IMG/VR virus record: IMGVR_UViG_3300028925_011137
Coordinates: 1-20,664 of that record
Length of the DNA stretch: 20,664 nucleotides
Source: a virus
Reading direction: 5' to 3' (one strand)
Position numbers and translations under genes: made by a program. The notes beneath the pieces are model-generated. The model saw nothing but the letters and a program-made list of their open reading frames with translations. It made no database searches and was not told the DNA's origin. Shown here in pieces: positions 5,669-18,211 of this stretch (position 1 is the stretch's first letter; the number at the start of each line of letters is the position of its first letter).

Positions 5669-6931
5669 ATGGCTTCAAGAAGTTTGGGCTACTGTGTTAA
5701 TTCAGCTTTAAAAGAGATTGGTGATCCGGCGATAAGTTCGTTCACGACCACCAATATACTTCAGTCTATACTCATAGAAGAGGTCAATGAGTGCGTTGAA
5801 GAGATAATGACGTATGGTGAGTTTCGATGGGCGTTGAAGCATAGTAACTTTGTAACGACTGCTGATATCACCACAGGACAAGTCGCTATTACTAATGGAT
5901 CACCTACCGTCAATAGTGTCGATGCCGATGACGTAAGTGCTAACAACTTCGGCTCAGTGACTACCGACATGTGGATCAGGCGCACTCAGGACAGTGAGTC
6001 GTATCCCATTGCAAAGGTAGTCACCAGTGGATCACCTGATACGTTGACATTGGGGGTATCGGCGGGGGCAGGGTCGCGTAACTACGTAGGCACGACCACC
6101 ACAGGTAGCGGATATCGCATCTTCCAAGACACTTACCCCTTACCCATCTTAGGGACCGTAACATTAGTCGCATCGTCAGCATCCGGCACGTATACCACGG
6201 GTGAGACTATTACGGGTGGTTCCAGTGGCTCTACGGCAACAATAGTGCTACATGACACAAGCCAATCTATTGTATATTTAAGTGGAGCAAGTGCTGCTTT
6301 TACGGTAGGTGAAACAGTTACAGGCGGCACGAGTAGCGTCACCTCTACCGTGACCAGTACTAATACGACAAGGGTGATGGATGAGATCAAGCATATTACC
6401 TATGGTCAGTCGGCTACATGGGCGCAGGGTCTGTCGGGGCAAATGGGTGATAATTCGATTAATATGGTGAATATGACCCGCATCATGTCAGAGTCGGGTG
6501 GTGATCTTCACCGCAACACCAGTGGTCGTCCTCACCTCGCTACGATAGTAAGTAATGCAGTAAATGAAGACCCGCGCCTTTTACTTTGGCCGTTTCCAAC
6601 GAAAGCGTATTTAGTTGATATCTGGTATAAGGAATTATTCAACGATGCCAGTGTTTTCGATACCGATATCTTTGGCGGCAATGCCCCTGGAATCGCCTAT
6701 CAAGCCGTGCAAGCTCGGTGCAAGGTAAGAGCCGCCATGTTCAATGAAGACAGAGGTAGGGCGCAGATGTGGGAGCAACGGTATCAGTCGTCTATAGGTC
6801 ATCTTATGCGGCGTGAGAATAGGGAAGAGATTGATGCTGCTTTTGATCTTCAGACCTACCGCAGAGATTACGGAGTAACGATACCCACTCGTAGCGGTAT
6901 ATACTTCGATATTAAAGGCGCACAACGATGA
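5669..6931 (+). CDS. Head-tail adaptor / tail tubular protein A-like
   Basis: This is probably the ring that joins the portal to the tail (T7 gp11-like role). The 420-residue protein has a helical N-terminus (LGYCVNSALKEIGDPAISSF, then ILIEEVNECVEEIM, residues about 7-47) as in such adaptors, then beta-rich segments. The C-terminal part runs from PRLLLWPFPTKAYLVDIWY (about residue 305 on) to helices (QAVQARCKVRAAMFNEDRGRAQ and RYQSSIGHLMRRENREEID). Between them, residues about 162-235 form a Thr/Gly/Ser-rich insertion with two related repeats (GETITGGSSGSTATIV and GETVTGGTSSVTSTV). It precedes the transpeptidase-domain gene with a 4-base overlap. An AGGT ribosome site lies close to the ATG. 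Confidence 0.65.
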   Translation: MASRSLGYCVNSALKEIGDPAISSFTTTNILQSILIEEVNECVEEIMTYGEFRWALKHSNFVTTADITTGQVAITNGSPTVNSVDADDVSANNFGSVTTDMWIRRTQDSESYPIAKVVTSGSPDTLTLGVSAGAGSRNYVGTTTTGSGYRIFQDTYPLPILGTVTLVASSASGTYTTGETITGGSSGSTATIVLHDTSQSIVYLSGASAAFTVGETVTGGTSSVTSTVTSTNTTRVMDEIKHITYGQSATWAQGLSGQMGDNSINMVNMTRIMSESGGDLHRNTSGRPHLATIVSNAVNEDPRLLLWPFPTKAYLVDIWYKELFNDASVFDTDIFGGNAPGIAYQAVQARCKVRAAMFNEDRGRAQMWEQRYQSSIGHLMRRENREEIDAAFDLQTYRRDYGVTIPTRSGIYFDIKGAQR

Positions 6932-8259
6932 ACTATAAAGACGTAGGGTTAGGCGATCCAGGTACAAATAGAGAATGGATACTTACGGAAAGAGACGATG
7001 GTCGTATTGATGCTGTTCTCTTTGATAGAGACAGCTATACGAGCGTTACTCGTCGTGTAGTAGATAATCCTGAGTCAAATAAGCGCGAATCGGCAGGACG
7101 TTCTCAAGACGATCCAATAGTAATGAACGAAACGGTGGTGACGACAAAAAGGGACATAGTTGATAGGGCTGATGTAGACGATGCGCTTTCCCCGCCTATA
7201 GCCAGATTCCAAGGTAAAGAACCTACGTTACCTTCTTCTCCATTAGAGCGTATAGAGGGACCATCTCTTCCACCCGAATTAGATATCCAACTATCACGTT
7301 CAGGGGTGCCGCCGGTAAGACCCAAAGAGCCAATCGGTTTCGCATCAGATGATATGAGTCTTGATGACGTAGACCTTATGGATGTTGATATAGATGATTT
7401 AGAGCCACCATCGCTTCCATCGACAAAGAGATTTCAAGGAGAAGAGTTTACCTCTCCGTCATCGCAATTAGAGCGTATAGATCGACAAACTCCTTTTGAT
7501 GGTCCGTTACCAGAACCGGTGAAGTACCCATCGGCCATTATAGATCAACCCGCAGAACTACCCATGCCCGTAGAAGAGGAGAGTGTCGATATCAAGAAGG
7601 TCGAGATATCACCGACTATTACGGATGCAGTAATACGTAGTCAGAAGGCGATAGGGTCCTATGAATCACCCCCTGGTGAAGTGGTGGTTACGGGAGATGC
7701 CTTGGAAGAAGTGGCTGATCCTTCGCCGCAAGCACCGTATAAGTTGGTAATAGATCCAAATAACAATACAGCAGAGATATTAGATGCGATAGGTACTTCT
7801 ATAGAGCAGTTTCAGGTAGGGACCGGTGATACTACTGGTACACGGTATGGGAAAAAGTATTTCTCACCTACCGGCTTTTTTAAAGTTAAAGATGAAGTGC
7901 CTATGGCAGGGGGCAGTGGGTATGAGCCGTTATGGATGGGATTGACTCAAGCATCTAATTTAGATCAGTTTACTGGCGCACCTATCACTAGTGAAGATCA
8001 GCCGTACGATGTAAGATATACCTACCCAAAACTTGGTGAGGATGCAGGGAAAGGATATGGGCTACACGGACCTCATAAGCAGGGCGATAAGGCTGAAGGT
8101 GGTGGATTTGAGAATGAGGGGTTTATATCGCATGGGTGCTTGCGTTTTACAGAGGACGATATATTAAGAGTAGGTGAGTATTTGGATGTAGGGTCATCTG
8201 TCGAGATATTACCTTATGATACTCGTCCATTGCATCGTGGGGCATTGAGAATAAAATGA
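6928..8259 (+). CDS. Tail-locus protein with C-terminal YkuD L,D-transpeptidase domain
   Basis: The C-terminal part (residues about 271-430) matches the YkuD (L,D-transpeptidase) catalytic domain: a starting YKLVIDPNNNTAEIL strand, FQVGTGDT, SPTGFFKV, a GLHGP motif with His380, and the SHGCLRF motif (Ser401 to Phe407) with the nucleophile Cys404 and Arg406. In this family the Cys attacks the third residue of a peptide stem and makes 3-3 cross-links, attaches proteins to peptidoglycan or trims the stem. The first 265 residues are hydrophilic, Pro/Asp-rich and probably disordered, with a duplicated segment (residues 93-117 and 168-192) and an acidic run (141-160). No signal peptide exists, so delivery to the wall would have to be by the virion or after lysis. 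It overlaps the genes on both sides by 4 bases (adaptor and nozzle), strongly implying a tail-linked role. The last residue is Lys. Confidence 0.85.
   Translation: MNYKDVGLGDPGTNREWILTERDDGRIDAVLFDRDSYTSVTRRVVDNPESNKRESAGRSQDDPIVMNETVVTTKRDIVDRADVDDALSPPIARFQGKEPTLPSSPLERIEGPSLPPELDIQLSRSGVPPVRPKEPIGFASDDMSLDDVDLMDVDIDDLEPPSLPSTKRFQGEEFTSPSSQLERIDRQTPFDGPLPEPVKYPSAIIDQPAELPMPVEEESVDIKKVEISPTITDAVIRSQKAIGSYESPPGEVVVTGDALEEVADPSPQAPYKLVIDPNNNTAEILDAIGTSIEQFQVGTGDTTGTRYGKKYFSPTGFFKVKDEVPMAGGSGYEPLWMGLTQASNLDQFTGAPITSEDQPYDVRYTYPKLGEDAGKGYGLHGPHKQGDKAEGGGFENEGFISHGCLRFTEDDILRVGEYLDVGSSVEILPYDTRPLHRGALRIK
7204..7278 (+). repeat. Internal repeat copy 1 (RFQG...LERI) in the transpeptidase gene
   Basis: Encodes residues 93-117, with the core RFQGKEPTLPSSPLERIEG. 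A related copy lies 225 bases later. The two share RFQG-E--(T/S)PSS-LERI. The segment sits in the disordered N-terminal half, so it may be a duplicated short binding motif. Confidence 0.55.
7429..7503 (+). repeat. Internal repeat copy 2 (RFQG...LERI) in the transpeptidase gene
   Basis: Encodes residues 168-192, with the core RFQGEEFTSPSSQLERID, matching the copy at residues 93-117 with an offset of 75 residues. The conserved pieces are RFQG, PSS and LERI. Confidence 0.55.
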
Positions 8260-9803: not shown

Positions 9804-11228
9804 ATGGCAGCAGATTTTGAAGATAGTCAAGAAAGAATAGCGGCTGCGGCAGCACGTTCGGCAGAGTTCCAGAATATGGTGCGAGATTGGAACATGCGGA
9901 ATCAGGTAGCTTTTCTGCCAGGGATCTTGGGCCAAGGTAAGGCTACTGCTGATTTTTATACTAACCAACCAAGAACGATGTTTGTATCAGATCGCTTTCA
10001 GCCTCAAGGTGTACAGGAGTATCAGGGGGGGAATCTGGCTGATATAATCCCTTGGACCGGTTCGCCGGAAGAGGGGGATGGTAGGGACGATGGACTAGCG
10101 GTTGAAGAAGTAGCTCCGACAGATCCGGTTATTCTCGTAGATCCTGGAGGAACATCTACTGAGGATGGTGGTAATAACTTTATTACCACTCCAGAAGATT
10201 TGGTGCCTATTGTAAGTGAAGATGGTACAGTTGATTCAAAGGTTGTTGATACTATAGCGGGAAGAGGAGGAGGGTTTGATCCTCGAACCGATATTGGTCA
10301 GTTTTTACGTGGTCTTGATCTTAATCCTACAATAGATATTGATTTCTTGACGGAAGCGATTGCTAATTCTACGGCTGGTATGGGAGGTCCTGACGATTGG
10401 ATGTATTTGGCTAATAAGATTATGGGCGAAGAGCTATATAAAGGCGAAGAGAACCCAACTTTAGTGGATGACGATATGCGAGGCTTAGTCACCAATCCAA
10501 CTTTAGTGGACGAGGGCATGCGAGGCTTAGTCACCAATCCAACTTTAGTGGACGAGGGCATGCGAGGCTTAGTCACCAATCCAACCTTAGTGGATGAGGG
10601 CATGCGAGGCTTAGTCACTAATCCGACCTTGTTAGATGAGGGCATGCGAGGCTTAGTCACTAATCCAACTTTATTAGATGAGGGCATGCGGGGCTTAGCG
10701 ACTAACCCAACTTTATTAGATGAGGGCATGCGGGGCTTGGTCACTAACCCAACTTTATTAGATGAGGGCATGCGGGGCTTGGTCACTAACCCAACCTTGT
10801 TAGATGAGGGCATGCGGGGCTTAGTCACTGACCCAACTATGATAGGTGATGATTTACGGGGAGTAGTCACTGACCCAACCTTGTTAGAGGGGATGAGGGG
10901 GCCGGTATCGAAAGCAGACTTCGGGGTACCCAACTTAGAAGGTTTAATGGGACAATATGCGGGAGACTACACACCACCGGTACCATTGGCACAATTCGAT
11001 GAAGAAACCTTAGATAGATTGACAAGGCAACAAGGTGAGGGTGGGGCGGATGTTCTGGCAGAATCACCAGTAGAGCAAATTTTGAGGGATGTACGAGATG
11101 GTGTCCTACCAGCAGACGATGCAGTAACAGAGCTAACAAATATTGGTCTACCGAAGACAGATGCGATTGATATTATTATATCGCACACGGAAGGTCTTAC
11201 TCCAGGTATAGCCGGAGTAATAGGCTAA
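9804..11228 (+). CDS. Repeat-containing putative virion/ejection protein
   Basis: The function is not recognised. The 474-residue protein has an amphipathic N-terminus (ADFEDSQERIAAAAARSAEF, then FQNMVRDWNM), an acidic middle with many Asp/Glu, and then a striking array of about eleven 14-residue repeats (residues 217-369, core NPTLLDEGMRGLVT). After the repeats come a linker and a short helical C-terminal domain (about residues 415-474) with VEQILRDVRDGVLPADDA and LTNIGLPKTDAIDIIISH, which resembles a small helical bundle. It has no signal peptide or membrane helix. It begins 9 bases after the nozzle gene, with a GGAG ribosome site. Placement between the tail tube and the ejection proteins suggests a tail-tip, internal or host-contact role. 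Confidence 0.65.
   Translation: MAADFEDSQERIAAAAARSAEFQNMVRDWNMRNQVAFLPGILGQGKATADFYTNQPRTMFVSDRFQPQGVQEYQGGNLADIIPWTGSPEEGDGRDDGLAVEEVAPTDPVILVDPGGTSTEDGGNNFITTPEDLVPIVSEDGTVDSKVVDTIAGRGGGFDPRTDIGQFLRGLDLNPTIDIDFLTEAIANSTAGMGGPDDWMYLANKIMGEELYKGEENPTLVDDDMRGLVTNPTLVDEGMRGLVTNPTLVDEGMRGLVTNPTLVDEGMRGLVTNPTLLDEGMRGLVTNPTLLDEGMRGLATNPTLLDEGMRGLVTNPTLLDEGMRGLVTNPTLLDEGMRGLVTDPTMIGDDLRGVVTDPTLLEGMRGPVSKADFGVPNLEGLMGQYAGDYTPPVPLAQFDEETLDRLTRQQGEGGADVLAESPVEQILRDVRDGVLPADDAVTELTNIGLPKTDAIDIIISHTEGLTPGIAGVIG
10452..10910 (+). repeat. Tandem 42-base repeat array, about 11 units
   Basis: Nine 42-base units (10452-10829) each encode NPTL(V/L)D(E/D)(G/D)MRGL(V/A)T. A tenth diverged 42-base unit (10830-10871) and an eleventh shortened 39-base unit (10872-10910) follow. 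Units 2 and 3 (10494-10577) are identical in DNA, as are units 7 and 8, while the outer units differ mostly at third positions. The copies form a gradient from an early GTGGAC-type to a late TTAGAT-type sequence, as expected from repeated local unequal crossing over or slippage under protein-level constraint. Confidence 0.9.
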
Positions 11229-14576: not shown

Positions 14577-17222
14577 ATGGCTGATATTAGCACATATAAT
14601 CGTGTCCGTGATGACTATAAGGTTCAGACCTTTGAGACTTATGCGGAAGCAGGGGCATATCTCAAGGATAGAAATCCCAATCTAACGATCAACACAGAAC
14701 GAGCGGCACGTAGCTTTGAAAAGAAAAACCCTCATCTGATGAAGGTGCTGGAAGGTATGCCTTTCGCAGATAAAGCGTTGGACTTTGCAATGAAAGCCCC
14801 TGGCGCAGCACGTAACGCCCTAAATTTAATACCTGGCTTGGGTGCTATGAGTCGTGTAGTGGATAATCCTATTGATCCTTCAACGGGTGAAGCCAGGAGG
14901 GGAAGTGAAAGTCCCAACAATGCTTTAACTAAACTTTTTGGAGGGGTGTCTGCTCTAGATGACAAAGTAAAAGAGGTAGGTGATGTCGGAAGTAATTTCA
15001 TGTCCGGTATCAGTTCGGGAATGACGTTAGGCGGCACAGAACAGTTGTCTCAAGCTATAGGCAATAAACCAGAATCTGGTATGGCTTTTGGTGCTGGTGA
15101 GCTTATCGGTGAGATGATAATGCCGTATAAGGCTGCTCGTCTTGTATTGGGTATGACTAAGATGGGTGGACGTATGATGGGGCAAGAAGGGCTAAAAGGT
15201 ATATTAGGTCGTGCGGCAATGGGGGGGGCTGAGTCTGCTATGGTAGAAATGCCTAAGTCTATTATAAGAGGTGAGGATTTAGATGAAGCTGCCAAACATG
15301 GTGCTATAGCCTTTGGTGTAGGTACTGCATTTCCACTGCTTCTACGTGGATCGTATGTAGCGGGTAAGAAAGGGATAGAACGATGGTTAGGTCCTGGTAA
15401 GGGCGAGATTGATGACGATTTGGTGAGGTTTCTGCGTGAAGAAGACTTATTGGATGAGGCTCCAGCTTCTATATTACGTCCTACTTCTGATATGATATCG
15501 TTTGTACAACAGCGTACAATGGCAAGTGCAGCAACACGTAAGATATATACTAAATCAAGAGAGAAATTAACCACTGTAGTTGATAAGATGCGCGATAGGA
15601 TATCTCTTAGATTGGGAGATAATGTCACGGCACAACATCCGTCTGAGGTAGGTACCGTAGTCGTTAATGACATAACCAAATCGTTAGAGTTTTTGAAAGA
15701 TTCTAAAAATGCGGCCTATGATAAAGTTTCATTATCTATTATAGGGAAAACGCCTATTAAGCCTAATTTGAAAATGGAAATAGTGTATCCTGATGCCAAT
15801 GGTGATCCAGGCAGGACGGAGAAAGTTTCTCTTTTTGAAGGCTTAGAAGATATCATTGGTCTAGATGTCCTTGCAGGAGCATCACCGGCAATTTCACCGG
15901 CAAGGCGTAAATTAATGGCTACTTATAAGTGGGCGAAAAAAAATGCCACAAAAGTAGAAACGACAACGGATGATGTGCATATTCGGGATCTTGAACCTTC
16001 GGGTAGCAAGCTCTTTGCTGATGTTAACATCAATCCCGCTACCGGAAAACCATTACCTTCACCTGGAAGGAGACCTAGGGAGACAGCAGAACAAGCTAAT
16101 GTCAGGCAGGATATACAGGGTGTGCAGCCGGTTGAGTCTTTAGCTGAACAAAATGTGCGCCTGGATCTTCAAGGTAGGCCCATTGCAAAACGCACGACGA
16201 CTGAGGTGGTATACAAAGATTATAATTGGTGGTGGAATAGAGCTAAAGAAATTGGCAGTTTATTAGATCAAAAAGCAGTCGTTGAATCGCCAGCAGACCG
16301 TCAGATGGTAGGTAGGGCATATCATCTTATTAGAGATGTAATTGATCGTCATGGCGAAGAGATGAGCATCATATCGGGCGATGGTAGTTATAAAACCGCG
16401 ATAGATGCAGCAAGGGCATCTCATATAAATTATACTACATTCCAGCACCACCCGTTAGTGAACAAGTTCCTTGTATTGGGTAGTTTAGATAATAAGAGCA
16501 TTGCTGAACCTGAAAAGATCATGCCGTTGATTTTTAATAATACTTCAGCAGTACGGGAAGTAAAGCATATACTTGGTCCCGATGCTTTTAATCAAGTCAG
16601 GCAGTCATGGCTTCATTCTTTACTTATTGATGCGATAGAATTAGAGTCTAATGGGACCATCCAAGGCATCAATGCTAAGAAATTGATGGCGCAGTTACGT
16701 AAATATGGATGGATGGATGAAAGTCCTTCTTCTTTAATAATAGAGATGTTTAGTGATGAAGGGTTTGTTACGCCGGATGGTGCGCCTATAAGTGGCGTGA
16801 CAGAAGCACCCATTAAATTAGAGGACTTCAAAAAGTTCGTTCATAATGTAGGACTTCTTAGTGAAGCAACAGAGCTTATGAAGACCGCAGGACGACCTGA
16901 TGCTATGGGGGGTAGTTCTCAGGAACGGTTTAGTGGTGGTCGATTTTCTTCTCCCAGATCCTTGCTTGATAATGTTAAGACAATGGCATTGTCTATGATA
17001 GTAGCAAAGAAAGGTGCCGAAGAACTACAAAAAGGATATGGTAAAAGTATATTCTTAGGTGGTTCAGGTCCCGAAGCTGCTTCTATAGATGCCGATTTAA
17101 GTCGTGTGCCTTTTACATCTCGTAAGGAATCACCGTTAAGTCGTAATCCCAATATAAAACTTACGGAAGAGACAATGGTACAGGGTGCCTCCGCAGTCCT
17201 TAATAGGATAATGAATAGATGA
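14577..17222 (+). CDS. Large ejection / internal virion protein-like, 881 aa
   Basis: This is the longest complete gene in the window. An amphipathic, basic N-terminus (about residues 1-50) precedes a Gly/Met/Ala-rich, moderately hydrophobic region from about 139 to 275. That region includes FMSGISSGMTLGGTEQL, FGAGELIGEMIMPYKAARLV and GAIAFGVGTAFPLLLRGSY, the sort of segment that could enter a membrane during DNA ejection. The rest is mainly helical, with a short duplicated motif AEQANVRQDIQG / AEQNVRLDLQG around residues 504-535. No lytic transglycosylase or other enzyme motif is recognised. It ends with a 4-base ATGA overlap onto the terminase gene. A tape-measure role is possible by size, but the gene neighbourhood favours a podovirus-type ejection protein. 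Confidence 0.6.
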   Translation: MADISTYNRVRDDYKVQTFETYAEAGAYLKDRNPNLTINTERAARSFEKKNPHLMKVLEGMPFADKALDFAMKAPGAARNALNLIPGLGAMSRVVDNPIDPSTGEARRGSESPNNALTKLFGGVSALDDKVKEVGDVGSNFMSGISSGMTLGGTEQLSQAIGNKPESGMAFGAGELIGEMIMPYKAARLVLGMTKMGGRMMGQEGLKGILGRAAMGGAESAMVEMPKSIIRGEDLDEAAKHGAIAFGVGTAFPLLLRGSYVAGKKGIERWLGPGKGEIDDDLVRFLREEDLLDEAPASILRPTSDMISFVQQRTMASAATRKIYTKSREKLTTVVDKMRDRISLRLGDNVTAQHPSEVGTVVVNDITKSLEFLKDSKNAAYDKVSLSIIGKTPIKPNLKMEIVYPDANGDPGRTEKVSLFEGLEDIIGLDVLAGASPAISPARRKLMATYKWAKKNATKVETTTDDVHIRDLEPSGSKLFADVNINPATGKPLPSPGRRPRETAEQANVRQDIQGVQPVESLAEQNVRLDLQGRPIAKRTTTEVVYKDYNWWWNRAKEIGSLLDQKAVVESPADRQMVGRAYHLIRDVIDRHGEEMSIISGDGSYKTAIDAARASHINYTTFQHHPLVNKFLVLGSLDNKSIAEPEKIMPLIFNNTSAVREVKHILGPDAFNQVRQSWLHSLLIDAIELESNGTIQGINAKKLMAQLRKYGWMDESPSSLIIEMFSDEGFVTPDGAPISGVTEAPIKLEDFKKFVHNVGLLSEATELMKTAGRPDAMGGSSQERFSGGRFSSPRSLLDNVKTMALSMIVAKKGAEELQKGYGKSIFLGGSGPEAASIDADLSRVPFTSRKESPLSRNPNIKLTEETMVQGASAVLNRIMNR

Positions 17223-18211
17223 CGGAGCCTTCTACAGACTGTCCTTTTGTCGAGTTGATGGAACGGGAATATTATTTAGACGACACCAAAGTGCTGGTTG
17301 AGTTTCAGCCCCATCAACGCCGGATCTTGAATAAGGCGTTTACAGCCAATGAAGAGGGTAAGCTGCCCTATGAAACGGTGGTATGGTCAACGCCTAAGAA
17401 AGAGGGTAAGACGGCCATAGGAGGGGCTATAGCCTACGGGTGGTGTCGTCATTACGGTGGTAATGCGTTTAGCCTTGCTAACGACAAAGATCAAGCCGGT
17501 GAACGTATGTTTGATCGGGTGGTTAAAAACTTGCAGATAATGAAGGAGAAGAATGAGTCCCTTTTTCTGCAAATTGTCGATGAAGGATACCATGATCGAA
17601 TAACGAAAAACAACATGATAGAATTTGCGGAAGGCGGCCAGATTAATCCTTCACCGCACTGGCTTAAGTTTGTACCGGCTGATTATGCGGGTGAGGCGGG
17701 TGGTCGTCAGGCGTTTACCTGCTTTGATGAGATGTGGGCGTATAAGGGCGATGCGATGTCGAGGTTTTGGGATGAGTTCGTTCCCCTCTCTATCATGCCA
17801 GCCTCTCTACGCTTTATCACAACGTATGCGGGGTGGTATGGGGAGAGTGAACTGCTGTGGAGTATTTACGAAACTGTAGTCAAGCCTGATCCACACGATC
17901 CGCATGTTAAGCACGGTACACCGGTTCCTGAGTTAGAAGATTTACCGGTCTATCAATACGGGACAGCTTATCAACCAGGCAGTTATTTAGTATATTGGGA
18001 CCATGAGAACAGGATGCCCTGGAAGACTCCAGCGTATATAGAGGGGCGGCGTAATGATCCAGCCGTTAAAGGTCGAGAGAGTGAGTGGCGTAGAATGTGG
18101 AAAAATGAATGGACCACCGGCCAAGAGGCATTTCTACCCGCTGAATTAATAGATGAACTTATGGATATGGCTGAGTCTAAAGGCTTAGTCAATCATATGA
18201 AACACTGGTAA
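17219..18211 (+). CDS. terL: Terminase large subunit, ATPase domain only
   Basis: This is the DNA-packaging motor ATPase. The 330-residue protein has an adenine-contact FQPHQRRIL segment (29-37), a Walker A STPKKEGKT (57-65) and a Walker B AFTCFDE with Asp170-Glu171. The coupling motif TTYAG follows (201-205). After a WRRMWKNEWTTGQEAFLP segment (near 290-305), which in related proteins leads into the nuclease domain, it stops at residue 330 (TAA 18209-18211). The first nuclease strand and its catalytic Asp are therefore missing. Typical full large subunits are about 450-600 residues. The following DNA encodes a new protein in another frame with its own ribosome site, so no frameshift remnant is seen. 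It overlaps the upstream gene by ATGA. Confidence 0.85.
   Translation: MTEPSTDCPFVELMEREYYLDDTKVLVEFQPHQRRILNKAFTANEEGKLPYETVVWSTPKKEGKTAIGGAIAYGWCRHYGGNAFSLANDKDQAGERMFDRVVKNLQIMKEKNESLFLQIVDEGYHDRITKNNMIEFAEGGQINPSPHWLKFVPADYAGEAGGRQAFTCFDEMWAYKGDAMSRFWDEFVPLSIMPASLRFITTYAGWYGESELLWSIYETVVKPDPHDPHVKHGTPVPELEDLPVYQYGTAYQPGSYLVYWDHENRMPWKTPAYIEGRRNDPAVKGRESEWRRMWKNEWTTGQEAFLPAELIDELMDMAESKGLVNHMKHW

What the first reader, a model, noticed from the sequence alone, without database searches (positions are those of the whole stretch)
7738..8259. L,D-transpeptidase (YkuD) domain built into a tail-locus virion gene
The C-terminal half of the 443-residue protein has the diagnostic YkuD features in the right order: VIDPNN and FQVGTGDT strands, SPTGFFKV, GLHGP with His380, and SHGCLRF with Cys404 and Arg406. 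No catalytic residue appears lost. The gene is locked between adaptor and nozzle genes by 4-base overlaps. Phages usually break peptidoglycan with lysozymes, amidases or peptidases; a transpeptidase chemistry carried by the tail would be unusual. It might cleave or exchange stem peptides to open a hole for DNA, tether the particle or an ejected protein to the wall, or seal the wall after entry. Which of these is not visible in the sequence. The absence of a signal peptide argues against simple cytoplasmic expression and export.
Basis: partly seen in the sequence, partly recalled or inferred. Interest (0 to 1): 0.88.

Follow-up and report, generated by a model that had tools for sequence, protein, structure and literature searches.

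The report
Transpeptidase-like domain in phage structural locus
A group of uncultured viruses of bacteria carries, among the genes that build the virus particle, an intact-looking enzyme domain of a kind that bacteria use to cross-link or trim their cell wall; no close relative turned up in the bacterial genomes searched, and it may be a wall-modifying enzyme packed into the particle, which has not been shown.

Summary
Window ORF 6928-8259 (443 aa) matches Pfam YkuD (PF03734) at 42.9 bits, cut-off 23.4. His380, Ser401, Cys404 and Arg406 are in place. The predicted domain of a close relative resembles B. subtilis YkuD (Z 15.9, rmsd 2.1 over 113 residues). The gene is under purifying selection.

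'Built into the tail' is only partly right. In 24 of 28 related loci holding adaptor and nozzle nothing YkuD-like lies between them. In 19 records (window plus 18) the gene sits at several places, each among structural or packaging genes so far as these could be named. It behaves like relocatable cargo: small N-terminal domain in most members, disordered tether, enzyme. An active-site signature occurs in 18 viral contigs and was not found in 84,980 prokaryote species genomes.

Best guess: a virion-carried peptidoglycan modifier acting at entry. Whether it cuts, exchanges or joins is open; 11 of 18 distinct members end in Lys (control 9 of 341), which suits self-attachment to the wall. Phage YkuD domains are already in print; this family matches no PHROG. 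New variant of a known kind.

The parts
6928..8259 (+). 443-aa YkuD-domain gene, overlapping its neighbours by 4 bases on both sides; protein ends in Lys
6928..7062 (+). N-terminal block (residues 1-45), predicted three-stranded beta element; pattern LGxPGxxREW...DG...A.LFD in most relatives; proposed docking domain (inference)
   Evidence: AF2 pLDDT block means 79-89; alignments A3 and A5; found by a loose pattern in 14 of 18 distinct members, L079 by eye, not in L075, L086, L087
7063..7611 (+). predicted disordered acidic, Pro-rich linker (residues 46-228; 40 D+E, 19 K+R, 26 P); length varies widely between relatives
   Evidence: pLDDT under 50 for 53-230; composition; whole members range from 216 aa (L086) to 782 aa (L070)
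7612..7737 (+). conserved lead-in to the catalytic domain (residues 229-270), two predicted helices
7738..8208 (+). YkuD (L,D-transpeptidase) catalytic domain, residues 271-427; His380, Ser401, His402, Cys404, Arg406
7951..8049 (+). 33-residue insertion (about residues 342-374; borders depend on the alignment) just before the catalytic His; absent from L004, L005, L068, L069, L070, L077, L079, only about 5-8 residues in the other aligned members
   Evidence: alignment A6; sequence
8107..8145 (+). family signature F-x-N-x-G-[FY]-[IV]-S-H-[GA]-C-x-R (residues 394-406)
   Evidence: DNA pattern for it found in 18 viral contigs and 0 genome contigs
5669..6931 (+). SU10-type adaptor gene (neighbour)
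   Evidence: Pfam PF24175, 32.9 bits
8256..9794 (+). probable nozzle/hub protein gene (neighbour)
   Evidence: phrog_3287 E 2.3e-8; remote matches in HMO-2011 and HTVC103P

Best explanation
The gene encodes a three-part protein: an N-terminal beta domain that most likely docks to a virion or scaffold component, a long flexible tether, and a C-terminal YkuD-fold cysteine enzyme. It is made with the structural proteins, carried in or on the short-tailed particle as exchangeable cargo, and released into the periplasm at infection. There Cys404, with His380, would attack the L,D bond of a peptidoglycan stem peptide, form an acyl-enzyme, and hand it to water or to another amine, so loosening or remodelling the wall at the entry site. 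Shown by computation: fold family by sequence and by the predicted structure of a relative, intact residues, purifying selection, placement among structural and packaging genes. Inferred: presence in the virion, docking role of the N-terminus, delivery to the periplasm, activity on peptidoglycan, and which of the possible reactions dominates.
For: YkuD family by profile and predicted fold: L005 domain model, Z 15.9 to 4a1i (a second look at Foldseek's own matches). Catalytic His, Ser, Cys and the transpeptidase-type Arg invariant in 13 of 13 aligned members. dN/dS 0.22 and 0.27 over the gene, 0.18 and 0.21 over residues 229-443. Placement in 19 records: 5 between adaptor and nozzle, 1 between two small genes before the scaffold gene, 3 directly before the portal gene, 8 after a ~700-aa protein near the terminase with none or one small ORF between, 2 among large proteins (portal models matched in L068 and L087; in several records the neighbours are named only by similarity to another record or by position). 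In G010 the protein begins with a 22-residue peptide that also begins 5 other proteins of the same region (two body types, neither like YkuD); 6 hits at E <= 0.01 (one internal, in L024) against 0 of 300 shuffles, as expected for a cargo-targeting peptide. 4 of 15 YkuD-carrying records searched also have a Peptidase_M15_3 gene, so YkuD need not be the endolysin. Precedents: T7 gp16 transglycosylase domain, exchangeable between ejection proteins (PMC8954989, passages); TM4 tape measure (PMC1796659, abstract).
Against: No proteomics or structure of any such virion. The N-terminal block is not seen in L075, L086 and L087, and the 22-residue tag is found only in G010 and relatives, not in the window protein. 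The ~700-aa neighbours tested (L070, L072) match no portal model and their family shows no profile similarity to the portals. The active-site loop has pLDDT below 50 in both models, so the Cys-His geometry was not tested. The His-to-Ser spacing is 20 residues, longer than the spacing printed for the LD-transpeptidase motif (HXX14-17-(S/T)HGCh, PMC9638812). 41 of 46 capsid relatives, many of them fragments, show no YkuD, so the gene is dispensable. N-terminal block dN/dS against L005 is 0.40, so the proposed docking part is the least constrained in that pair.
Confidence: 0.47

Rival explanations
1. Lysis-stage enzyme: it accumulates in the cytoplasm like an endolysin without signal peptide, is released by a holin, and helps to break or weaken the wall at the end of infection.
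For: YkuD is counted among phage lytic proteins in PhaLP (PMC8310338) and occurs in a gut-phage endolysin (PMC13284279, passage). Mic1 gp80, annotated L,D-transpeptidase, was tied to lysis by its late expression (PMC11237433, passage). A structure search gives a weak match to a Nodularia phage protein named endolysin. PF00959 lysozyme in 0 of 11 carriers searched; no M15 gene found in 11 of 15 carriers searched, most of them fragments.
Against: 4 of 15 carriers searched have a separate M15 peptidase gene. Recognised neighbours are structural or packaging genes, not a lysis cassette. The long tether and N-terminal block are odd for an endolysin (judgement).
Confidence: 0.19
2. Wall hardener: delivered with the virion, or released late, it adds L,D cross-links, sealing the entry hole or making the cell resistant to transglycosylase-armed competitor phages, while the phage's own lysis uses an endopeptidase that such links do not block.
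For: Arg at Cys+2, typical of transpeptidases, is kept in 13 of 13. LdtE overexpression in E. coli cut plaques of transglycosylase phages lambda and P2 but not of P1, T4 or T5 (PMC11390936, one section read). M15 peptidase gene in 4 of 15 carriers, PF00959 in 0 of 11.
Against: No direct evidence of cross-linking; a few molecules per virion could alter only a small patch of wall. YkuD folds also hydrolyse (PMC12729407, passages).
Confidence: 0.12
3. Tether: the enzyme joins itself or another virion protein to peptidoglycan, as E. coli LdtA-C join Lpp by its terminal Lys, and so anchors the particle or conduit to the wall during DNA transfer. Its own C-terminal Lys could be the acceptor.
For: 11 of 18 distinct members end in Lys, against 9 of 341 other ORFs of 150 aa or more from the same loci; by eye this is 5 of 11 lineages, with differing last residues before it. 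Lpp is linked through its terminal Lys (PMC8263019, passages); another protein is anchored likewise in Dickeya (PMC12274547, passages). The linker could give reach.
Against: 7 of 18 members do not end in Lys. The lineages share ancestry, so the count of independent events is small, and the control ORFs were called mechanically. In several members the Lys lies within a few residues of the domain end, so the same molecule may not reach its own site.
Confidence: 0.12
4. It does not act on peptidoglycan but on a virion or host protein, for instance as a cysteine transpeptidase that cross-links particle proteins during assembly.
For: Gene sits with assembly genes; Pfam reports no peptidoglycan-binding domain in the protein.
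Against: No YkuD enzyme with such a substrate is known to me; the gene is missing in most related records, which still carry capsid, adaptor and nozzle genes.
Confidence: 0.04

Closest known systems
Bacillus subtilis YkuD and bacterial L,D-transpeptidases (PF03734)
   Same: Same family by profile and predicted structure; same His, Ser, Cys, Arg set
   Different: No signal peptide or membrane anchor seen and no second Pfam domain; among phage structural genes; 20 residues between His and Ser with an invariant FxNxG; the window member has a further 33-residue insertion
T6SS effector Tlde1 (LD-carboxypeptidase/exchange)
   Same: YkuD-type enzyme delivered into a target cell by a phage-tail-like machine (tail likeness recalled); LD-transpeptidase motif (PMC9638812, passages)
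   Different: Longer His-Ser spacing; no immunity gene was sought; carried by a phage
T7 gp16 transglycosylase and TM4 tape-measure hydrolase motif
   Same: Works like, as proposed: peptidoglycan enzyme carried by the virion for entry; gp16 domain exchangeable
   Different: Different fold and chemistry; those are established virion proteins, this is not
Microcystis phage Mic1 gp80 and other annotated phage YkuD proteins
   Same: Phage-encoded YkuD/L,D-transpeptidase annotation; 6 viral models match at E <= 0.001 in BFVD, TM-score by query 0.37-0.50
   Different: No tblastn match of the window domain in 50,697 phage records at E <= 0.01; Mic1 gp80 was proposed as a lysis protein; their gene contexts were not examined here
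DpaA/LdtF, Csd6, Pgp2 (YkuD-fold hydrolases)
   Same: YkuD fold; Csd6 and Pgp2 structures are among the matches
   Different: They lack the Arg two places after Cys (PMC8263019, passages); the phage proteins keep it in 13 of 13

Membership tests
YkuD / L,D-transpeptidase catalytic domain (PF03734) | Score above Pfam's curated cut-off | tested here: met
   42.9 bits against 23.4
YkuD / L,D-transpeptidase catalytic domain (PF03734) | Catalytic His and (S/T)HGC with catalytic Cys | tested here: met
   H380, S401-C404; His, Ser, His and Cys invariant in 13 of 13, L087 has SHAC
YkuD / L,D-transpeptidase catalytic domain (PF03734) | YkuD fold | tested here: met
   Model of relative L005, which lacks the insertion: Z 15.9 to 4a1i. 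The window's own model (mean pLDDT 49) also ranks LD-transpeptidases first but is too weak to count alone. Active-site loop poorly predicted
Transpeptidase-type (as against carboxypeptidase/DpaA-type) YkuD enzyme | Arg two residues after catalytic Cys | tested here: met
   R406; invariant in 13 of 13; criterion from PMC8263019
Transpeptidase-type (as against carboxypeptidase/DpaA-type) YkuD enzyme | LD-transpeptidase activity in vitro | not testable with these tools
   needs purified protein
Tlde1 effector family | Match to its own domain model (PF10908; that this number is the Tlde1 model is recalled) | tested here: inconclusive
   only PF03734 was reported at E <= 0.1; whether PF10908 is in the copy was not checked
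Tlde1 effector family | Spacing in HXX14-17-(S/T)HGCh | tested here: not met
   20 residues between H380 and S401; not filed here
Virion-associated peptidoglycan enzyme | Encoded among structural or packaging genes | tested here: met
   19 records, neighbours partly named only by similarity or position
Virion-associated peptidoglycan enzyme | Present in purified virions | not testable with these tools
   no proteomics; uncultured phages
Canonical endolysin | Lies in a lysis cassette as the phage's sole lytic enzyme | tested here: inconclusive
   no lysis neighbour recognised; separate M15 gene in 4 of 15 carriers searched, most records fragments

The most novel reading that the evidence does not exclude
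A branch of L,D-transpeptidases known here only from phages is packed into podovirus particles as swappable cargo and acts at entry by joining, not cutting: it staples a virion protein, perhaps itself through its C-terminal Lys, to the host wall, or adds L,D cross-links that seal the entry site and harden the cell against transglycosylase-armed rival phages, while lysis later relies on an endopeptidase.
Probability: 0.18. Interest if true: 0.88.

Novelty: new variant of a known kind. Interest (0 to 1): 0.6.

Why it matters
The virion cell-wall enzymes whose chemistry I recall are hydrolases or transglycosylases; a transpeptidase-type enzyme carried by particles would add a chemistry that can join as well as cut. 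Published work shows that L,D cross-links protect E. coli against some phages (PMC11390936), so a phage that carries such an enzyme raises a directly testable question about competition between phages. The family has a clear signature, and in one lineage a shared N-terminal tag that may show how podoviruses load cargo.

Tried and rejected
Fixed tail part: rejected, since the gene is absent from the adaptor-nozzle gap in 24 of 28 related loci and lies elsewhere in others. Several of the 28 look near-duplicate by layout (L014/L015, L022/L036, L031/L034, L037/L038, L045/L046).

Host or prophage origin: profile A2 scan of genome contigs, 91 stretches matched, none confirmed; signature scan, 0 matches. 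That scan used the TCN serine codons only; the AGY form was tried in viral contigs alone (0). Metagenome contigs were not searched. Absence from these collections is not absence from nature, and the host is unknown; the 23 phage records with a related capsid have Gram-negative hosts where one I know is shown.

Named phages: no match for the window domain at E <= 0.01, one at E 0.5 for the G010 domain, and only E 3-4 rows shown for the window N-terminus. HMO-2011 and HTVC103P have no PF03734 match. PHROGs (E <= 0.1) and NCBIfam (E <= 0.01): 0 families for 11 members.

Decay: rejected (dN/dS). DpaA/carboxypeptidase type: not favoured, Arg kept. A scan for the N-terminal block alone could not be built. 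~700-aa protein as portal: not confirmed. Ten ORFs chosen from relatives, mostly from the adaptor-nozzle gap and nearby slots: no lytic domain by Pfam at E <= 0.01. The insertion as a capping loop like those of YcbB and Tlde1a is a guess from position only.

Literature: searches (open-licence PubMed Central texts; several listings were cut, e.g. 25 of 841). 13 papers were opened, mostly for passages, outlines or abstracts; the rest were seen as titles and abstract starts. I saw no virion-borne L,D-transpeptidase there; some listed papers that hold the term were not opened (e.g. PMC9239132, PMC10269750, PMC13053645).

Changed on re-checking: I had first written that the lack of a common C-terminal Lys speaks against the tether. 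Counting it showed an excess of C-terminal Lys, so the tether went from 0.07 to 0.12, the best explanation from 0.50 to 0.47, and the novel reading was widened to joining in general.

Full report
What was checked. The window is a 20,664-base virus record with a run of genes on the + strand: among them a capsid gene (Pfam PF10124 and PF25209), an SU10-type adaptor, the gene in question, a probable nozzle, several large proteins without a Pfam name, a terminase-like ORF and an ORF that runs off the end. The 443-aa ORF 6928-8259 overlaps both neighbours by 4 bases. Pfam gives YkuD over residues 271-427, 42.9 bits against a cut-off of 23.4. Cys404 is the only cysteine, and no stretch is hydrophobic enough for a membrane span (best 19-residue mean 0.6).

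Fold. AlphaFold on the full protein with 10 relatives gave mean pLDDT 49, with a confident N-terminal three-stranded beta element (residues 1-45), a disordered middle (53-230) and a partly resolved C-terminal domain. Foldseek's first four PDB matches for it are L,D-transpeptidases (8da2, 5bmq, 4z7a, 3zqd), but with low TM-scores, as expected from so weak a model. The domain of close relative L005, which lacks the window's 33-residue insertion, gave mean pLDDT 70.7 and pTM 0.64, and Z 15.9, rmsd 2.1 over 113 residues to B. subtilis YkuD 4a1i. Most of the 50 rows there are titled L,D-transpeptidase; a few (Bd1075, Csd6, Pgp2, 1zat, 4xxt) bear other titles. The loop between catalytic His and Cys is below pLDDT 50 in both models, so active-site geometry is not established.

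Relatives. The protein itself found 4 close loci. Profiles of the domain found more distant phage members. A DNA pattern for the signature F-x-N-x-G-[FY]-[IV]-S-H-[GA]-C-x-R then found 18 viral contigs, all already known from the earlier scans; the variant with AGY serine found none, and the genome collection (84,980 species) none with the TCN form. With the window this makes 19 records. Alignment of 13 members shows His, Ser, His, Cys and Arg invariant, with Gly before Cys replaced by Ala in L087. No PHROG or NCBIfam model matches any of 11 members. In 50,697 phage records the window domain has no match at E <= 0.01. So it is a YkuD subfamily seen here only in uncultured phages.

Position. 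The capsid of the window found 46 loci. Of these 46 records 5 have a YkuD match; a sixth, L052, ends inside the gene before the domain. Among 28 loci holding adaptor and nozzle, 4 have the gene between them, all in the window's own clade; 24 do not, although the nearest (L014, L015) share 85% capsid identity with the window. In G010 (about 65% capsid identity) the gene sits between two small genes before the scaffold gene. Over the 19 records: 5 adaptor-nozzle; 1 scaffold-side slot; 3 directly before the portal (models matched in L068 and L087; L067 has the same start of the next gene as L068); 8 after a ~700-aa protein near the terminase, with none or one small ORF between (terminase model matched in L072; others by similarity or position; the ~700-aa proteins of L070 and L072 matched no model and their family did not align to the portals); 2 among large proteins (in L075 downstream of a nozzle-type protein; L086 by a neighbour shared with L075). 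The gene is relocatable, and the neighbours that could be named are structural or packaging genes.

Cargo hints. Most members share the N-terminal block LGxPGxxREW...DG...A.LFD (14 of 18 distinct members by a loose pattern). In G010 this is preceded by a 22-residue peptide that also begins four proteins from two related phages (L022, L027) and another G010 protein. The bodies fall into two further types, neither similar to the YkuD protein; the three ~200-aa ones share about 50-70 residues behind the tag. With L024, where a similar stretch is internal, 6 hits reach E <= 0.01, against 0 of 300 shuffled tags. The slot that holds YkuD in G010 holds a tagged ~200-aa protein in L022. This looks like a targeting peptide for exchangeable cargo; T4 internal proteins offer a parallel (recalled). 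The window protein lacks the peptide.

C-terminus. 11 of 18 distinct complete members end in Lys, against 9 of 341 other + strand ORFs of 150 aa or more in the same loci. By eye these are 5 of 11 lineages: the window clade, L070/L071/L079, L069, L072/L073 and L087. L,D-transpeptidases join the terminal Lys of Lpp to the wall (PMC8263019, passages), so self-attachment is a fair idea. The lineages share ancestry and the control ORFs were called mechanically, so I give it modest weight.

Selection. Against L004 and L005, dN/dS is 0.22 and 0.27 over the gene; by part 0.20 and 0.40 (residues 1-45), 0.26 and 0.27 (linker), 0.18 and 0.21 (229-443). For comparison against L004: adaptor 0.11, nozzle 0.06. 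The gene is kept functional but evolves faster than its neighbours.

Other wall enzymes. None of the nine other window proteins scanned matched a lytic domain (8 further ORFs were not scanned). PF00959 lysozyme: 0 of 11 carriers searched. Peptidase_M15_3: 6 of 30 records, including carriers G010, G053, G054 and G056, that is 4 of the 15 carriers in that call. Pfam scans of 136 further ORFs from five larger records showed no other lytic family in the lists printed (3 families were not shown). Most records are fragments, so absences carry little weight; the presences show that in four records the YkuD protein is not the only candidate wall enzyme.

Mechanism. [quoted passage not shown] The Arg after Cys, missing in DpaA and LD-carboxypeptidases (PMC8263019, passages), is kept. 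With the gene position and tether, I favour a virion-borne enzyme acting on the wall at entry, analogous in role to the T7 gp16 transglycosylase domain, which is needed with highly cross-linked walls and can swap to the gp15 homologue (PMC8954989, passages). Whether it loosens, caps or joins is undecided. Raised LD cross-linking protects E. coli from phages lambda and P2 but not P1, T4 or T5 (PMC11390936, abstract and one section read), which makes wall hardening against rivals a real possibility.

Novelty. YkuD in phages is not new: 10 entries in PhaLP (PMC8310338), one gut endolysin (PMC13284279), Mic1 gp80 (PMC11237433), and 6 viral models at E <= 0.001 in BFVD. New, so far as my searches show, are a subfamily with its own signature, its placement among structural genes with a tether and N-terminal domain, and its behaviour as relocatable cargo. 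I rate it a new variant of a known kind.

Noticed in passing
9804-11228: 474-aa protein with about ten tandem copies of a 14-residue unit (NPTLVDEGMRGLVT-like); the gene is 502 aa in the otherwise near-identical phage L011.
   Followed up: no
L019:78-1025, L019:4234-5436, L022:188-823, L022:4751-5338, L027:1209-2237, L027:4594-5199: A 22-residue N-terminal tag (MTMMPNxDPxxLRxIAxxMSTG-like) shared by proteins of three body types in the portal-scaffold region; possible capsid-targeting peptide.
   Followed up: partly
7951-8049: 33-residue in-frame insertion before the catalytic His, absent or much shorter in the other aligned members; possible capping loop.
   Followed up: partly
8254-8256 and C-termini of relatives: 11 of 18 distinct YkuD members end in Lys against 9 of 341 other ORFs from the same loci.
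   Followed up: partly
L012:7319-7687, L013:9024-9392: 122-aa ORF between adaptor and YkuD gene in two relatives, missing in the window; no Pfam match for the L012 copy.
   Followed up: partly
17219-18211: 330-aa ORF matching part of terminase large subunit profiles (phrog_9), downstream of the structural genes; may be incomplete.
   Followed up: no
L087:339-1388: Member with SHAC instead of SHGC at the active site, just before a P22-type portal gene.
   Followed up: no
L072:7865-8299, L070:8928-9386: Small Cys-rich, zinc-ribbon-like proteins (by eye; PF09723 matched one ORF of the L070 genome) one or two genes downstream of the YkuD gene.
   Followed up: no
L070:12343-14465: Glycosyltransferase-type genes near the structural genes of the L070 phage (two glycosyltransferase families matched in that genome; placed by eye).
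   Followed up: no
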